Of a DNA stretch of 64,000 nucleotides, positions 59,187 to 64,000 are shown in pieces. Position 1 is the stretch's first letter, and the number at the start of each line of letters is the position of its first letter. Below the pieces are notes generated by a model. The model was given only the letters and a program-made list of their open reading frames with translations, did not search any database and was not told the origin of the DNA. The position numbers and the translations under genes were made by a program. Origin of the DNA: Pedobacter namyangjuensis (GTDB taxonomy: Bacteria; Bacteroidota; Bacteroidia; Sphingobacteriales; Sphingobacteriaceae). The stretch spans positions 992,001 through 1,056,000 of the forward strand of contig NZ_QMHQ01000002.1 of the NCBI RefSeq assembly GCF_003313325.1. Reading direction: 5' to 3'.

Positions 59187-59392
59187 AACAAAAATTCAAG
59201 GCTGGCATAATCCCCTTGCATAAAGCTAACAACAGCTTTATTGCGTAAGAAAAAGACGTTGCTACACCCCAACCTTCCGCACACGTTGCTTTCTTACTCG
59301 TTTGTACTAACCCTGTAGGTACAGCAATGCTGTTTGTGGCTTTCTGCTACGGTGATATGCTAGGCCGTCCTTTCGTGCTTAGCAACATTCTA

Positions 59393-59526
59393 ACGCAACC
59401 ACGTCATTGCGAAGCCTAGGGTTGAGCGAGCCGAAGCAATCTTTTCAATAATTCCATCACACACCTTTTTCAGACTTTTTCAGACTTTGTCAGACTTTGT
59501 CATCCCGAGTTTCGAGGGATCTGCCT
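59393..59526 (+). repeat. Composite intergenic repeat, copy B
   Basis: The same blocks as 58993-59104, with an internal triplication of 'cagacttt' (59471-59499) that accounts for the extra length. Confidence 0.8.
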
Positions 59527-59537
59527 TTCAAGCTACG

Positions 59538-59562
59538 TCATGCCCAGCTTGACTGGGAATCG
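59538..59562. repeat. Palindromic 'tcatgcccag' element
   Basis: CCCAG-CTTGA-CTGGG flanked by 'tcatg' and 'aatcgt', another short dyad of the type scattered in this region. Confidence 0.6.
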
Positions 59563-59866
59563 TAATGCGATAAATGCCAACATTCGGACCCCACGCCGCA
59601 TTGCCTCATTCCATGGCCCCGAGTGGCTCCTCAAAAACTTTAATCCTAAGCTAGTCATGTAATAACTGAGCTTGCCAAGGGCGCCGTTTACGAGAACATA
59701 GCAACAGTGTGTTTTGAAGGTGCCCACCATACCTTAAATAAAAATAGATAATAAAAAACACGTTAGTCCTCGTTACCCCCTACTTCGTCCTCATTACCTT
59801 AGAATTGGTACTTCCGATTTGCTTTCAAAAAACTAGGTATTTAAACTTACATTAAATTTTAACGCT

Positions 59867-61465
59867 ATGATCAACTTGCTACAACCTAAGCAAAATAATA
59901 TCGATGCCGTATTAAAGCATCTCTTGAACGCATTAAATGTAAAAATAAGTAAAAGTTCCCGAGAACAAGGTCTTCAAGATCATCCCTCTTACCCTAGCTT
60001 GCTCGCAATTAGCGACATTTTAACAGATTGGGAAATTGAAAACCAAGCCTATAAAATAGAAAAAAACGAGTATAATCCTGACGATCTATTTTTTCCCTTT
60101 ATCGCACATGGCAATGGAAATGGCGGTCAATTTATGCTAGTGAATAGGATTGTAAACGGCAGTGTTAATTATTCTGACCATAAAGGTACTAATCAAAGCA
60201 TAACGGAGAAAGATTTCTTAGACTTTTGGAGCGGTATCGCCTTACATGCTTCCACTACAGAAAAAAGCGGAGATAAAAACTATAAAGACAATAGTGTAAG
60301 AGATTTCTTTGATAAAATTAGAATACCATTATTGATTGCTGTTGGCTTCACATGCTTATTATTTGTATTAATTAGTACATCCTCAAACATCGGCTATACT
60401 TTGCTAATCTTAACTAAAATAATTGGTGTAAGTGTTAGCATATTATTGCTTATTCACAGTATCAACGCAAACAATCCGCTGATTCAAAATTTATGTAGTT
60501 TGGGCAATAAAAACGACTGCAACGCAATCCTTAAATCAGATGCTGCAAAAGTTAATAGTTGGCTTAGCTGGAGTGAGGTTGGATTTTTTTATTTCGCTGG
60601 ATCAACATTGAGTTTATTAATCAACCCAGCCACATTGCCGTTCATTGCCATAATTAATATCTTAGCCCTACCCTATACCATCTATTCTGTAAGTTATCAA
60701 GCTAAAAATAAGAATTGGTGCATCCTCTGTTGTACAGTTCAGGTTTTATTGGTGTTGGAGTTTGCGATAAACTTGATTTTGAATAACAGCTTCAAGACAA
60801 TTGATCAAACGACATTTAGCATACCTCTATTTAGTTCAATAACTATTGCATTTCTAGTACCTGTAGCAATTTGGTCTTCGCTTAAACCATCCTTATTAAA
60901 AGCTGCGCAGTTACAACCACTTAAACAACAATTAAAAAAATTCAAGTACAACAGCGACTTATTTCAACAAGCATTAACTAATCAGCCAAAATTTGCAGTA
61001 CCAGACGACCTCATGCCTATCACTTTAGGTAATCAAGCTGCCGAAACAACGATTACTATGGTGAGCAATCCTTTTTGTGGCCCCTGTGCTAAAGCCCATG
61101 AAACCCTAGATCAATGGCTTAGTAAAAGGGATGACCTTAAAGTAAAAATCATCTTTTCTACAGCAGATCATGATGATGATGAAAAAACAAAGGTATCACG
61201 TCACGCCACTGCACTTAGTTTACTCAACGATACTAAACTTTTAGAAACTGCGCTAAACGACTGGTATAAACAAGGAAGCAAAAAGTACGCAACCTGGGCC
61301 GAAAAATATCCTGTAACCTTTAACGGAGAAATGAAAACCGTTACAGAAAAACAAAAAGAATGGTGCCAGTTAGCCGACATCACTGTCACACCTACAATTT
61401 TAATAAATGGCTACAAGCTACCAAGTCCTTATCTTTTAGAGGATATCAAATTCCTTTTAACCTAA
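59867..61465 (+). CDS. C39-like/VKOR/DsbA-like fusion protein for peptide maturation
   Basis: A 532-residue membrane protein with three parts. Residues 1-130 resemble a C39 peptidase (HPSYPSLLAISDIL, then IAHGNGNGGQFMLV and FLDFWSGIAL), but have no cysteine at all and Gln88 at the histidine position, so this part cannot be catalytic. Residues 150-340 are a VKOR domain: loop cysteines 210 and 218, the same 8-residue step as in human VKORC1, and the active CxxC Cys285-Cys288 in NWCILC. Residues 380-532 are DsbA-like, with FCGPC (Cys404/Cys407) and cis-Pro509 in VTPTI. Together they would form disulfides in the periplasm, with the first part possibly binding leader peptides. A four-cysteine precursor follows. 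Confidence 0.9.
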   Translation: MINLLQPKQNNIDAVLKHLLNALNVKISKSSREQGLQDHPSYPSLLAISDILTDWEIENQAYKIEKNEYNPDDLFFPFIAHGNGNGGQFMLVNRIVNGSVNYSDHKGTNQSITEKDFLDFWSGIALHASTTEKSGDKNYKDNSVRDFFDKIRIPLLIAVGFTCLLFVLISTSSNIGYTLLILTKIIGVSVSILLLIHSINANNPLIQNLCSLGNKNDCNAILKSDAAKVNSWLSWSEVGFFYFAGSTLSLLINPATLPFIAIINILALPYTIYSVSYQAKNKNWCILCCTVQVLLVLEFAINLILNNSFKTIDQTTFSIPLFSSITIAFLVPVAIWSSLKPSLLKAAQLQPLKQQLKKFKYNSDLFQQALTNQPKFAVPDDLMPITLGNQAAETTITMVSNPFCGPCAKAHETLDQWLSKRDDLKVKIIFSTADHDDDEKTKVSRHATALSLLNDTKLLETALNDWYKQGSKKYATWAEKYPVTFNGEMKTVTEKQKEWCQLADITVTPTILINGYKLPSPYLLEDIKFLLT

Positions 61466-61481
61466 AAATTTTGTACAAAAA

Positions 61482-61511
61482 GGGGTAGCACGGTTGCAAC
61501 GAAACTACCCC
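61482..61511 (+). promoter_or_regulatory. GC-rich hairpin between the fusion gene and the peptide gene
   Basis: GGGGTAG pairs with CTACCCC around a 16-nt loop, 16 bp after the fusion-gene stop. No T run follows, so it may slow RNA decay or polymerase rather than end transcription fully. Confidence 0.55.
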
Positions 61512-61606
61512 AATAACGTTCATGCAGTTATCAAAAATACATGACGCTTAAGTAATCCAGGCGTGACTGAATTACAAAATCTTAAATACGATTCAAATTT
61601 ACGAAA

Positions 61607-61834
61607 ATGGAATTAGAAAAAATGAACTTGGCTTCAATGCAAAAATTGACAAGAAGTGAGATGAAAAAGATTATGGCGGGCAGTGGTGATGAATATGGTG
61701 ATTCACCTAAGGTAGCAGCTTGTAAAAATAAATCAAGATATGACAAATGTTTTTTTGATTATCAAGGCATTCCGGTAGAGGGAAAATGTGACGCACATAT
61801 GGCTTCTGAATTGTATTGTTCAACGCTTATATAA
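61607..61834 (+). CDS. Secreted peptide precursor with double-glycine-type leader
   Basis: A 75-residue peptide. The first 25-27 residues form a leader, MQKLTRSEMKKIMAGSG, which fits the Bacteroidota double-glycine-type leaders ('LsR.EMK.I.gG') cut by C39 peptidase-transporters; here the site is Gly25-Ser26 or Ser26-Gly27. The core of about 48 residues has exactly four cysteines (39, 48, 61 and 71) with gaps of 8, 12 and 9, a symmetric layout suited to two nested disulfides. It lies between a disulfide-forming fusion protein and a TlpA-like protein. It could be a bacteriocin or a signalling peptide; no activity can be read from sequence. Confidence 0.82.
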   Translation: MELEKMNLASMQKLTRSEMKKIMAGSGDEYGDSPKVAACKNKSRYDKCFFDYQGIPVEGKCDAHMASELYCSTLI

Positions 61835-61846
61835 TGTAATCAATTT

Positions 61847-61879
61847 ATCTAGCAGATGTTCCTGAAACATCTGCTAGAT
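61847..61879 (+). terminator. Strong hairpin after the precursor gene
   Basis: A perfect 14-bp stem (core CTAGCAGATG with CATCTGCTAG) around a 5-nt loop, 12 bp after the precursor stop. It has no T run and may act as a partial terminator or an RNA-stabilising element, a common way to raise precursor over downstream gene expression. Confidence 0.7.
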
Positions 61880-61894
61880 TAGAATAAAGTATTT

Positions 61895-63412
61895 ATGTAT
61901 AAAATATCTCAATTAAATCTTTTTTGCCTCTCTCTCCTGTTGTTCTTGTTACCATCTAAAGGGTCTGGTGCTATGTTTAACAATCCCTCAATAAAAGCAG
62001 GTACAGCTAGAATAACTGGAAGTATAATAAGGGCTAATGAAAAAACCAAAGATAGCGTCTTTATAAACATTACTGTTCCACACCCAATCTCCGGGGAGTA
62101 TGTTAAAAGTAAAGTGGCTGTTGATCAATTTGGGAAGTTTTCTATTAATATTGATGTAGAAACAAATATTTCGTTAGTCGCATTAAATACAAGTTTAAAG
62201 CCTGAGAAATATCTTCTTGTTAAGTTAACAAGTGGAGCCGTTACCACTATCAATATTACCTATAACCCTGATGATGACATCAGAAATATTGACATTATGC
62301 CCGCAATGAATCAAAACGATATGATTAGAGGCTTTGAGATTAGGGATAAAATGATCGGGTTTAGACCGAACAGAGCACCGCAACCCATGTATAATAAAAG
62401 CACAGAATATTTTTTGAGTTTTGCTAAAACTGCGTTAAACGAAAGATTAGAGATTGTAAAAAATGATACATTGATATCAAAAGGATTAAAGGAAATTCTA
62501 TCTAAAGATTATCGTTTAATTCTTTACAATGTACATGTCTTTGATTACGAAGGAGAGATGATAATTAATTATCGCAATACAAGTGGTGATAAAAACAAAC
62601 AGCCTGATATCCAAAAAATTGATAGAAACTATTATCATTTTTTGAGAGATTTTAATCTTAATGATATAGAATATTTGCATTGTTTTGAATTTCTGGAATT
62701 TCAAAAAAGAATTCTCCAAAATGAAACTTTAGGTATTCAGGAGATTGGGGAAAACGATATCAGTACATGGTTAGCAAATGTGAAAGTTATCCTATCAGAT
62801 TTAGTTGGGTTTAACGATGGTCCATACTACGATATTTTAATAGCTAACGCCTATGCTAGGCAACTTAACGAAGAAGTAAGGCCATTAACGAAAAAGCAGA
62901 AAGAGAATATTTTAAATTATTGGGGTAAAGGAGAAATTACGAAAATACTGTTCAGAAAAAACGATAAGGTTGTTGAATTAGATAAAATAAAATCACCAGC
63001 TGTTCTAAATGAAATCCCATCCGTTCCAAGCGATAAGATAATCGAAACAATTATATCTAAATACAAGAACAAAGTTATTTTATTTGACTTTTGGGCCACC
63101 TGGTGTGTTCCTTGTCTGGATGCAATACAGCGATTTAGAAGTACGAAGAATGAATTTAGGGATAAGGATGTTGTATTTGTGTATTTAACAAACGGGTCGT
63201 CCCCTCTAAAGTTATGGAAAGAAAAAATTAAGGGAATAGGAAGTGAACATTATTACCTAAACGACTCTCAGTGGGAATTTACCATGAACAATTTTGGCTT
63301 CGAAGCCATCCCCTCCTATTTATTATTTAATAAACAAGGTGTGCTCATTAATAAATTTACTGCCTTTCCCGAGAATAATAAAGTTAAAAAAATGATAAAT
63401 GAGCTGTTATAA
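61895..63412 (+). CDS. TlpA-like secreted thioredoxin protein
   Basis: A 505-residue protein with a signal peptide (about residues 1-26) and a long N-terminal region of DUF4369-like beta character followed by helices. The C-terminal 120 residues form a TlpA/ResA-like thioredoxin fold: WATWCVPCLDAI with Cys404 and Cys407, and EAIPSYLLF with the cis-proline. Such proteins reduce or isomerise disulfides in the periplasm. Its placement 60 bp after the precursor gene suggests it proofreads or reduces the peptide or the export machinery. The 14-bp hairpin lies between them. Confidence 0.9.
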   Translation: MYKISQLNLFCLSLLLFLLPSKGSGAMFNNPSIKAGTARITGSIIRANEKTKDSVFINITVPHPISGEYVKSKVAVDQFGKFSINIDVETNISLVALNTSLKPEKYLLVKLTSGAVTTINITYNPDDDIRNIDIMPAMNQNDMIRGFEIRDKMIGFRPNRAPQPMYNKSTEYFLSFAKTALNERLEIVKNDTLISKGLKEILSKDYRLILYNVHVFDYEGEMIINYRNTSGDKNKQPDIQKIDRNYYHFLRDFNLNDIEYLHCFEFLEFQKRILQNETLGIQEIGENDISTWLANVKVILSDLVGFNDGPYYDILIANAYARQLNEEVRPLTKKQKENILNYWGKGEITKILFRKNDKVVELDKIKSPAVLNEIPSVPSDKIIETIISKYKNKVILFDFWATWCVPCLDAIQRFRSTKNEFRDKDVVFVYLTNGSSPLKLWKEKIKGIGSEHYYLNDSQWEFTMNNFGFEAIPSYLLFNKQGVLINKFTAFPENNKVKKMINELL

Positions 63413-63578
63413 ATCAGCTAATAACTGCAGAAAATTAATGACCTAAACCACTTGAAGGCAAAACCATATAAATTAATTAGAGCTTTAAGCACCAAAATAA
63501 TAAGCAACTTTTATCATATTACGAATTCAGTTTCGCATCAAGCAAAACTCAAATGTCGTTGGAGAAACAAAACTATAG

Positions 63579-64000
63579 ATGAAACCTAAAAATAGCATTG
63601 CTATCCTAATTTGTTATATGGGGGAGCTACCTTGGTATAGCGATTTCTTTTTTTTAACATGCAACCACAATCTTGATGTGGATGTTTATTTGATATGTGA
63701 TCAACAAAAACAACATGAATTACCAGCTAAAGTAAAAATCGTCTACAGATCCTTAAGTGAAATTCGCGATGCTGCAGAAGAAAAATTGGTATTTAAAGTT
63801 AACTTAAATTACCCCTACAAGCTTTGTGATTTTAAGCCTGCATATGGCTTAATATTTAAAGATCTTATTATAGAATATGACTTCTGGGGTTATTCGGATA
63901 TTGATGTAATATATGGTAAAATCAGAGATTTTATAGATGAAGATTTATTGGGTCGATTTGATATAATAAGTGTTCGTCCTGAATATTTAACAGGTTTCTT
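63579..64000 (+). CDS. DUF6625 glycosyltransferase-like protein (5' part, runs off the window)
   Basis: The frame opens at ATG 63579 and stays open for 140 codons to the end of the window. MKPKNSIAILICYMGELPWYSDFF begins it in two strands, then NYPYKLCDFKPAYGLIF, and YDFWGYSDIDVIYGKIRDFI, where Asp-Ile-Asp would be the metal-binding DxD of a GT-A fold. These blocks fit DUF6625, glycosyltransferase-like proteins of Bacteroidota. It follows the TlpA-like gene by 166 bp on the same strand. It may decorate the peptide, or belong to a separate glycan operon starting here; the rest of the gene is needed to judge. Confidence 0.85.
   Translation, partial: MKPKNSIAILICYMGELPWYSDFFFLTCNHNLDVDVYLICDQQKQHELPAKVKIVYRSLSEIRDAAEEKLVFKVNLNYPYKLCDFKPAYGLIFKDLIIEYDFWGYSDIDVIYGKIRDFIDEDLLGRFDIISVRPEYLTGF

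What the first reader, a model, noticed from the sequence alone, without database searches (positions are those of the whole stretch)
59867..64000. Candidate gene cluster for a disulfide-bonded secreted peptide
Four genes in one direction encode, in order, a C39-like/VKOR/DsbA-like fusion, a 75-residue precursor with a double-glycine-type leader and four cysteines, a TlpA-like thioredoxin protein, and a DUF6625 glycosyltransferase-like protein. Seen: the motifs and order. Known: VKOR and DsbA form disulfides, TlpA/ResA proteins reduce them, and double-glycine leaders are cut by C39 transporters. Glycocin clusters such as that of sublancin also join a precursor, thiol oxidoreductases and a glycosyltransferase. 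Inferred: a peptide natural product with two disulfides, perhaps glycosylated. Against a true glycocin: the loop between Cys48 and Cys61 has no Ser, Thr or Cys to glycosylate.
Basis: partly seen in the sequence, partly recalled or inferred. Interest (0 to 1): 0.88.

Follow-up and report, generated by a model that had tools for sequence, protein, structure and literature searches.

The report
Disulfide-rich secreted peptide gene cluster
A bacterium, probably a Pedobacter, carries a gene set that appears to make, cross-link with disulfide bonds and export small cysteine-rich peptides, using a three-part enzyme whose sequence suggests that it works inside the cell rather than outside, and each of its three peptide genes is preceded by an uncatalogued folded RNA.

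Summary
In 80 named fusion loci, 70 carry a leader-matched precursor on the fusion's strand, and 108 of 110 precursors have an even Cys count; 40 transporter loci without the fusion give only 3-Cys peptides, at 2 loci, at the same threshold. New: (1) the fusion has a C39 fold without the catalytic motif, an extra transmembrane helix, and a reversed charge pattern in 107 of 107 fusions versus 2 of 19 other VKORs, predicting that all three parts face the cytoplasm; (2) a ~110-nt covarying RNA, not found in Rfam, stands 7-19 nt before 45 precursors (51 model hits; nearly all Pedobacter), including all three here; (3) TlpA proteins co-vary with their neighbouring peptides; (4) DUF6625 has a GT-A glycosyltransferase fold and goes with AG|S cleavage sites, 7 of 7 loci versus 3 of 63. 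Closest known: bacteroidetocins, glycocins. Cytoplasmic disulfide formation is inferred, not shown.

The parts
59867..61465 (+). C39-like / TM0 / VKOR / DsbA fusion protein (532 aa)
   Evidence: Pfam; AF2 model pLDDT 88, pTM 0.70; three domains matched by fold; 35 homologues aligned
59906..60259 (+). C39-like domain (residues 14-131), catalytic DCG motif missing
   Evidence: Z 14.8 to PCAT1, Z 14.6 to LahT150-leader complex 6mpz; DCG motif in 0 of 79 fusions, DCG/DCA motif in 54 of 54 full-length PCATs
60311..60379 (+). extra transmembrane helix TM0 (residues 149-171) in front of the VKOR core
   Evidence: KD19 hydropathy >= 1.6 in 105 of 107 fusions; model helix 139-170
60386..60901 (+). VKOR core and following helix (residues 174-345); C210, C218, C285, C288 invariant in 35 of 35
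   Evidence: Z 13.6, rmsd 2.1 over 125 residues to Synechococcus VKOR 4nv5
60992..61456 (+). DsbA/ScsC-like domain (residues 376-530), C404-G-P-C407 and T508-P509 invariant
   Evidence: Z 17.9 to ScsC 6nen
61474..61591 (+). structured RNA element (three stems) ending 15 nt before the precursor start codon
   Evidence: 98.7 bits with model R1; it is one of the 13 seed sequences of R1; covariation; no Rfam match above chance
61607..61681 (+). precursor 1, leader (25 aa, ends IMAG)
   Evidence: leader score 37.9
61682..61834 (+). precursor 1, core of 50 aa with 4 Cys (and stop codon)
   Evidence: similar cores beside the same TlpA type at other loci
61895..63412 (+). TlpA-like protein with signal-peptide-like start, probable partner of precursor 1
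   Evidence: core/TlpA co-variation; relatives of >= 690 bits
63579..64000 (+). DUF6625 protein a (continues to 64433); GT-A fold
   Evidence: AF2 pLDDT 92, pTM 0.90; Z 12.3 to BoGT6a 4ayl

Best explanation
The genes form a biosynthesis and export cluster for small disulfide-rich peptides. Each of the three precursors is made as leader plus core and has its own structured 5' RNA. The fusion is the disulfide-forming enzyme: its VKOR part passes electrons from the DsbA part to membrane quinone, and its dead C39 fold most likely docks the leader (or the transporter) so that oxidation is aimed at these peptides. The charge pattern and the extra helix suggest that this enzyme works on the cytoplasmic side, before export. 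In some loci cytoplasmic glycosyltransferases (here two DUF6625 proteins) add sugar, most likely to the Ser at the start of the core. The PCAT transporter then cuts after AG/GG with its active C39 domain and exports the core with the HlyD-like protein. A periplasmic TlpA protein, matched to its own peptide, reshuffles or proof-reads the disulfides. The likeliest role of the product is a bacteriocin-like weapon or a signal. Shown computationally: gene content, folds, conserved redox residues, even Cys counts, RNA covariation, TlpA-core co-variation. Inferred: cytoplasmic orientation, leader docking, glycosylation and its site, isomerase role, antibacterial role.
For: Conserved association and even Cys counts; invariant redox residues; fold matches; charge reversal plus TM0; the window's genome has one VKOR match and no DsbB match; transporter, HlyD and two more precursors downstream; 63 of 65 TlpA proteins with signal-like N-termini by a crude hydropathy measure; TlpA-core co-variation, partial Mantel r 0.54, p 0.001 (119); RNA element before precursors; DUF6625 GT-A fold and AG|S link. 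Experimental parallel: deletion of the thiol oxidoreductase or of a 5-TM protein attenuates bacteroidetocin activity (PMC6671954, sections 7 and 8 read).
Against: No experiment. The orientation rests on the positive-inside rule alone; one of the two 'other side' loops does not differ significantly from other VKORs (p 0.26). The TlpA partners look periplasmic, which would suit a periplasmic oxidase at least as well. Leader-C39 co-variation was looked for and not found (partial Mantel r 0.04, p 0.26). Six of 80 loci have a fusion without a found precursor. Outside the named set the Cys parity is less strict (13 of 16 even). DUF6625 is present at only 7 of 70 precursor-bearing named loci, so glycosylation is not general. 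GT25 against Ser-Gly content is weak once relatedness is counted. The RNA model found its element at 34 of 81 loci only, nearly all Pedobacter.
Confidence: 0.62

Rival explanations
1. Same peptide system, but ordinary orientation: the fusion's redox parts lie in the periplasm (N-terminal domain translocated too), and it is a DsbA/DsbB-type oxidase that works together with periplasmic TlpA on peptides already exported.
For: TlpA partners look periplasmic and match the cores; known DsbA/VKOR pairs act outside the cytoplasm (established knowledge; start of the abstract of PMC11208910 seen).
Against: K+R in the redox-side loops minus the other loops is positive in 107 of 107 fusions and in 2 of 19 other VKORs; if all six helices span the membrane, a ~150-residue N-terminus without a convincing signal peptide would have to be translocated (15 of 80 fusions have a hydrophobic stretch near the N-terminus by a crude measure).
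Confidence: 0.33
2. A member of the bacteroidetocin (class IIf bacteriocin) type: GG-leader, Cys-containing peptide with ABC transporter/peptidase, thiol oxidoreductase and a multi-TM protein; nothing more than a new branch of that group.
For: Same gene kinds: 5-TM protein, peptide with 4 Cys, thiol oxidoreductase, peptidase-transporter (PMC6671954 sections 7, 8).
Against: That paper describes a separate unknown 5-TM protein, not a C39-like/VKOR/DsbA fusion; a search of its main text gave no VKOR and no Pedobacter. Cores here are very diverse (96 Cys spacings in 110). Sequence similarity to bacteroidetocins was not tested.
Confidence: 0.25
3. A glycocin.
For: Precursor, thiol oxidoreductases, PCAT and glycosyltransferase together, as in glycocin clusters (PMC12457901 passages).
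Against: Cys spacing 8-12-9 instead of paired CX6C (CX6C recalled); DUF6625 resembles GT6/GT8-type GT-A enzymes; most relatives lack a glycosyltransferase between fusion and transporter.
Confidence: 0.05
4. The fusion is a general envelope oxidase and its neighbourhood is incidental.
For: Only VKOR match in this genome, no DsbB match; 6 of 80 loci lack a found precursor, e.g. L131 and L136.
Against: Accessory distribution: 28 of 60 same-genus genomes including this one; a precursor begins within 200 bp of the fusion's stop codon at 54 of 68 loci; all 20 RNA-positive genomes among those 60 are fusion-positive.
Confidence: 0.05

Closest known systems
Bacteroidetocins (class IIf bacteriocins; Coyne et al. 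2019, PMC6671954, sections 7 and 8 read)
   Same: Bacteroidota; leader cut after GG next to a peptidase-transporter; Cys-containing core; a thiol oxidoreductase and a multi-TM protein whose loss attenuates activity
   Different: Here the membrane protein is a C39-like/VKOR/DsbA fusion with an extra helix; TlpA partners co-vary with the peptide; HlyD, glycosyltransferases and a 5' RNA element; much more diverse cores
Glycocins (sublancin, glycocin F, thermoglycocin; PMC12457901, passages seen)
   Same: Precursor + thiol oxidoreductases + PCAT + glycosyltransferase
   Different: Different glycosyltransferase fold family, different Cys spacing, most clusters lack a transferase
Aeropyrum pernix VKOR acting in two compartments (Hibender et al. 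2017; title seen in a reference list; paper not held)
   Same: Precedent for a VKOR serving the cytoplasm
   Different: Archaeal; no C39-like domain or peptide cluster known to me (recalled)
PCAT C39 peptidase domains (ComA 3k8u, LahT150 6mpz, PCAT1 4ry2); the degenerate C39-like domain of HlyB (recalled)
   Same: Fold of the N-terminal domain
   Different: Catalytic motif missing; fused to a disulfide-forming enzyme instead of an ABC transporter

Membership tests
Double-glycine leader peptide exported by a PCAT | leader ending GG/AG/GA with hydrophobic spacing, next to a transporter with active C39 domain | tested here: met
   leaders LGG, LGG, IMAG; PCAT with DCG motif and Peptidase_C39 1.8e-35; export itself untested
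C39 peptidase (fusion N-terminus) | C39 fold | tested here: met
   Z 14.8 over 133 residues, rmsd 2.9, to PCAT1 9azl
C39 peptidase (fusion N-terminus) | catalytic Cys in DCG motif | tested here: not met
   0 of 79 fusions
VKOR | four-helix core, loop Cys pair and CxxC | tested here: met
   Pfam VKOR above cut-off; C210, C218, C285, C288 invariant in 35 of 35; fold match
VKOR of the usual orientation | redox side outside, positive loops on the other side | tested here: not met
   charge pattern reversed in 107 of 107 fusions, 2 of 19 others; a prediction, not a topology measurement
DsbA-like oxidoreductase | thioredoxin fold, CxxC, cis-Pro loop | tested here: met
   C404/C407, T508-P509 invariant; Z 17.9 to ScsC
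Bacteroidetocin (class IIf) | sequence similarity to known bacteroidetocins | not tested
   no bacteroidetocin sequence was compared
Bacteroidetocin (class IIf) | separate 5-TM protein, thiol oxidoreductase, peptidase-transporter | tested here: inconclusive
   thiol oxidoreductase and transporter present; whether the reported 5-TM protein is a VKOR relative was not tested
Glycocin | paired CX6C disulfides (recalled) | tested here: not met
   precursor 1 spacing 8-12-9; precursors 2 and 3 read
Glycocin | sugar on the peptide | not testable with these tools
   needs mass spectrometry
GT-A glycosyltransferase (DUF6625) | GT-A fold with DxD-like acidic motif | tested here: met
   Z 12.3, rmsd 3.7, 188 residues to BoGT6a; D107 and D109 invariant in 16 of 16; activity untested
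Knottin (subset of cores, not the window's) | inhibitor cystine knot Cys pattern | tested here: inconclusive
   9 of 110 cores at 4 loci match a spacing rule; a profile of 7 has PDB matches that are mostly knottin-type peptides, at E 0.008-10; no structure

The most novel reading that the evidence does not exclude
The fusion is a naturally inverted bacterial VKOR that installs disulfides in the cytoplasm in a leader-guided way: a dead C39 peptidase fold recruits the leader of the precursor, VKOR/DsbA oxidise the core while it is still inside, then a catalytic C39 transporter cuts and exports it and a peptide-specific periplasmic TlpA finishes the folding; a new class of cis RNA controls the precursors.
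Probability: 0.42. Interest if true: 0.93.

Novelty: new variant of a known kind. Interest (0 to 1): 0.82.

Why it matters
Disulfide bonds in bacteria are normally made outside the cytoplasm. A protein family found at 80 kept loci of many species (325 stretches of the scan encode some relative; only the best 80 were kept and looked at), whose sequence says that quinone-driven oxidation faces inwards, aimed at small peptides by a borrowed peptidase fold, would be a new way to make disulfide-rich natural products and a ready-made tool for producing such peptides. The cores are very diverse, including knottin-like and LDL-receptor-A-containing ones, and the RNA element gives a search handle: at 13 loci whose element is not in the named set it stood before a precursor in 11 (some of these loci had been seen before as fusion loci). 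Mapping the membrane topology of one protein would settle the main point.

Tried and rejected
Glycocin membership: rejected on Cys spacing and glycosyltransferase fold. Defence system: PADLOC gives three matches for the transporter (mad3, mad8, AriA) and none for the fusion, the TlpA or DUF6625 a. Known RNA family: in the window stretch 61440-61640 and in L117, L123 and L142 nothing but chance-level matches and one tRNA. C39-leader co-evolution: no signal. GT25 linked to Ser-Gly linkers: significant when loci are treated as independent (p 1.6e-5; 5 of the 6 GT25 loci entered) but only 3 changes on the tree and no significant sign test. DUF6625 with AG|S: 7 changes each on the fusion tree; in the 4 independent pairs on supported branches AG|S went the same way 3.4 times on average and never the other way, too few for the sign test. 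That script ended with an error in its last display step, after these results were printed. Literature: in the listings (capped lists; open-licence papers only) I saw no paper that links VKOR with double-glycine peptides, C39 or bacteriocin clusters; DUF6625 gave 0 papers. The first RNAalifold structure, which model R1 uses, mis-registers stem 1, so stems were counted in a script by fixed rules (41 of 51 matches parsed, 10 skipped; 34 for stem 1).

Rows left out: alignment A1 used 35 of 37 fusions (L044 and L067 left out; L067 is split into two frames). The charge test had 123 fusion rows and 20 other rows, 107 and 19 after dropping identical ones; four of the 19 tie at zero. The leader model was trained on 84 leaders chosen with >= 4 Cys in the core; the Cys count itself is not used in scoring. 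In one search and later the RNA matches were picked by a model that contains the structure, so pairing counts lean towards it.
Full report
Place and content. The window is G000:C12:992001-1056000 of a 4.33 Mb genome. Reading on past 64000 (L002 position + 58999 = window numbering) gives, all on one strand: fusion, precursor 1 (75 aa, 4 Cys), TlpA 1, DUF6625 a, DUF6625 b, C39-ABC transporter (727 aa, DCG motif), HlyD-like protein (428 aa), a 1.4 kb gap rich in direct repeats, precursor 2 (68 aa, 6 Cys in the core), TlpA 2 (375 aa), precursor 3 (leader LGG, 6 Cys). Pfam bears out the four labels tested (DUF6625 2.6e-59; Peptidase_C39 1.8e-35 with ABC domains; HlyD_3 1.1e-9; Thioredoxin_8 5e-18). 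Gaps from DUF6625 a to HlyD are 2-11 bases, so these look like one operon.

Recurrence. A protein search finds the fusion in 29 of 99 genomes including the window's own: 28 of 60 of the genus, 1 of 39 of other families of the class. Around 36 further fusion loci the precursor/TlpA/PCAT/HlyD set recurs, with gaps. A pattern scan of the named genome collection matched 332 stretches, 325 of which encode a relative of the query; the best 80, with nearly full-length matches, were kept and studied: mostly Pedobacter and Mucilaginibacter, with Chitinophagaceae, Spirosoma, Runella, a Bacteroidales record and others.

Precursors. With a leader-only weight matrix, 110 candidates at 70 of 80 loci score >= 14 on the fusion's strand; their cores hold 4, 6, 8 or 10 Cys in 108 cases and 3 or 7 in 2. 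There are 96 different Cys spacings, so this is not one peptide copied many times, though the sequences are related and the binomial p (9e-30) overstates independence. On the other strand 9 candidates score >= 14: three with 4 or 6 Cys (L137, L150, L161), the rest with one Cys, two of these looking like HTH proteins. As control, 40 loci of about 13-20 kb with a related PCAT but no fusion give 8 candidates at 2 loci, all with 3 Cys, none scoring >= 18 against 107 on the fusion side; a regular expression adds one with 5 Cys (L080) and two with none (L109, L110). Of the 10 loci without a same-strand hit, L128 has a lower-scoring precursor and L137, L150 and L161 the other-strand ones; L131, L136, L153, L164, L169 and L181 have none found. 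In the 67 loci with at least 9 kb downstream, 61 have a precursor, 54 a PCAT, 49 an HlyD and 43 a TlpA; 33 have all four. The nearest downstream precursor starts within 200 bp of the fusion's stop in 54 of 68.

The fusion. The AlphaFold2 model (pLDDT 88, pTM 0.70) has three known folds: C39 (Z 14.8, PCAT1; Z 14.6, LahT150 in complex with a leader), VKOR (Z 13.6, rmsd 2.1 over 125 residues, Synechococcus VKOR, model 174-311 on chain 17-154; a helical bundle, so Pfam and the cysteines carry that call too) and DsbA/ScsC (Z 17.9) (Foldseek). The VKOR and DsbA redox residues are invariant in 35 of 35. The DCG motif of C39 peptidases is found in 0 of 79 fusions, so the domain is not expected to cut.

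Orientation. The VKOR core starts at residue 174, which matches residue 17 of Synechococcus VKOR, so the hydrophobic helix at 149-171 is an addition; it reaches KD19 >= 1.6 in 105 of 107. If all six helices span the membrane, the C39-like part, the VKOR cysteines and the DsbA part share one side. Mean Lys+Arg counts are 3.60 and 2.04 in the two redox-side loops and 0.11 and 0.57 in the other two; in 19 VKORs without a C39-like part, taken from a scan of 148 genomes of the phylum, they are 1.68, 0.37, 2.26 and 1.16. The sum difference is positive in 107 of 107 fusions and 2 of 19 others, four of which tie at zero. The two exceptions are small stand-alone VKORs (L208, L218). The loop-45 difference alone is not significant (p 0.26). 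By the positive-inside rule (established knowledge) the shared side is the cytoplasm. This is a prediction. An archaeal VKOR active in two compartments is known to me only from a title in a reference list.

TlpA partners. In the named loci 63 of 65 TlpA proteins have signal-like N-termini by a crude measure and 62 a CxxC near the C-terminus. In 51 adjacent precursor-TlpA pairs at 40 loci, similarity of cores goes with similarity of the TlpA part outside the thioredoxin domain after allowing for the fusion (partial Mantel r 0.54, p 0.001); this rests on few close cases: 7 comparisons with similar TlpA parts have mean core similarity 0.41 against 0.11 for 1252 others, and the pair window/L126 has only 0.15. 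TlpA 1 of the window has relatives of 690 bits or more at L039 and L126 (same score; same genome), L064, L262 and L268. Beside those in L064, L262 and L268 stands a peptide stretch like precursor 1's core, e.g. ending GKCDTHMASELYCSTLI in L268; in L064 leader and core lie in different frames. L262 and L268 show no full-length fusion in the fetched 4-4.5 kb (L268 has an 84-aa fragment-like match) and put an LDL-receptor class A domain in front (Pfam 5e-12 for the L268 peptide).

RNA element. Folding the stretch between fusion and precursor led to a covariance model R1 from 13 seed sequences that include the window's. Over L002 and the 80 loci it gives 51 matches at E <= 0.1, at 34 of 81 loci, nearly all Pedobacter. 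45 of 51 are followed by a leader-scored precursor that starts 7-19 nt after the match's end; L128 would be a 46th. Many precursors, above all of Mucilaginibacter, have no match. In 46 control loci (40 PCAT-only, 6 with DUF6625 elsewhere) there is none. In the window's genome there are three matches at E <= 0.1, one before each precursor (150 of 1328 first-look candidates scored). Among the 60 same-genus genomes searched both ways, 20 are RNA-positive and all 20 carry the fusion; none of the 32 fusion-negative genomes has a match at E <= 0.001 (stricter filters there, 38 candidates scored per genome). At 13 loci whose element is not in the named set, 11 had a precursor, 10 of these with even Cys; in 15 longer stretches around such matches, 16 precursors at 13 stretches, 13 even and 3 odd (overlaps). 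In 41 parsed copies (34 for stem 1) own-arm pairing is 0.945, 0.728 and 0.710 for the three stems, against at most 0.819, 0.596 and 0.570 when arms are swapped between sequences (500 shuffles each), with both-sided changes at 20 of 22 positions. In the stretches searched (window 61440-61640, L117, L123, L142) Rfam 15 has no match to it. Its role is unknown; the place just before the start codon suggests control of translation or mRNA stability.

Glycosyltransferases. DUF6625 models as a GT-A enzyme (pLDDT 92; Z 12.3 to BoGT6a). In the genus it is rare, 11 matches in 10 of 99 genomes: 4 genes sit in fusion operons of 3 genomes, one lies beside a fusion on the other strand (L061), and 6 elsewhere. 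Of these 6, L071-L075 stand among genes that look like sugar-polymer genes (5 of 6 neighbours tested are glycosyltransferases by Pfam; the one from L075 had no match), and L070 stands beside an NRPS condensation domain and a sulfotransferase. In the named set all 7 loci with DUF6625 have precursors cut at AG with Ser first, against 3 of 63 others (Fisher 1e-7); two of those three (L190, L191) have another unknown family, DUF6734, instead. Representatives of other genes between fusion and transporter match GT25, Gly_transf_sug, Branch, GT11, group-1 transferase or UDPGT families. The window's precursor 1 also starts with Ser-Gly after AG.

What it resembles. Deleting the peptide, the thiol oxidoreductase or an unknown 5-TM protein attenuates bacteroidetocin activity, and four genes suffice in E. 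coli (PMC6671954, sections 7 and 8 read). The present system works like it but its membrane enzyme, TlpA matching and RNA are different. Whether the 5-TM protein is a VKOR relative was not tested. A commentary on a class II bacteriocin atlas mentions Bacteroidota candidates, without the words VKOR or thioredoxin (PMC12648078, passages), so precursors of this kind may already be counted there.

Verdict. A real, recurrent and coherent peptide system, a new variant of double-glycine disulfide peptides, with three features that I did not find described in the searches named: the inward-looking C39-like/VKOR/DsbA enzyme, the precursor RNA and the TlpA-core matching.

Noticed in passing
L262 (reverse strand, reverse-strand coordinate 2201) and L268:1674: GG-leader precursors with an LDL-receptor class A domain joined to a core like the window's precursor 1, beside a TLP1-type TlpA and no full-length fusion in the fetched stretch.
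   Followed up: partly
L168:9690-10545, L170:3668-4348, L174:13045-13233, L175:7198-8335: Nine cores with knottin-like Cys spacing; a profile of seven finds mostly knottin-type peptides in the PDB at weak E-values.
   Followed up: partly
L053:8515, L056:11195, L059:11295, L133:9340, L144:9278, L146:9177, L151:9263: A second kind of small GG-leader peptide with one Cys, on the other strand upstream of the fusion. Could be a signal or a partner peptide.
   Followed up: no
window 59361-59828 and L002:9844-11001: Direct repeats of 98-212 nt (up to 94% alike) in front of the fusion and between HlyD and precursor 2.
   Followed up: no
L084:15390-16520, L085:3405-4562: Arrays of five similar GG-leader genes with 3-Cys cores, about 4-5 kb from a PCAT without the fusion.
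   Followed up: no
L131, L136 (also L043, L045): Fusion without precursor, followed by a conserved protein of about 760 aa with a signal-like start.
   Followed up: no
L137:5076-5191, L147:15381-15483: Copies of the RNA element followed by frames that look like GT25-type glycosyltransferases rather than precursors.
   Followed up: no
L208, L218: Small stand-alone VKOR proteins (163 and 144 aa frames) with a charge pattern like the inverted one.
   Followed up: no
L061:7995-9231: Two longer Cys-containing frames after the fusion whose leader-like starts lack the GG site, followed by genes that look like glycosyltransferases.
   Followed up: no
L058:8797-9231, L063:8536-9027: Separate C39 peptidase-sized proteins with a DCG motif next to the fusion.
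   Followed up: no
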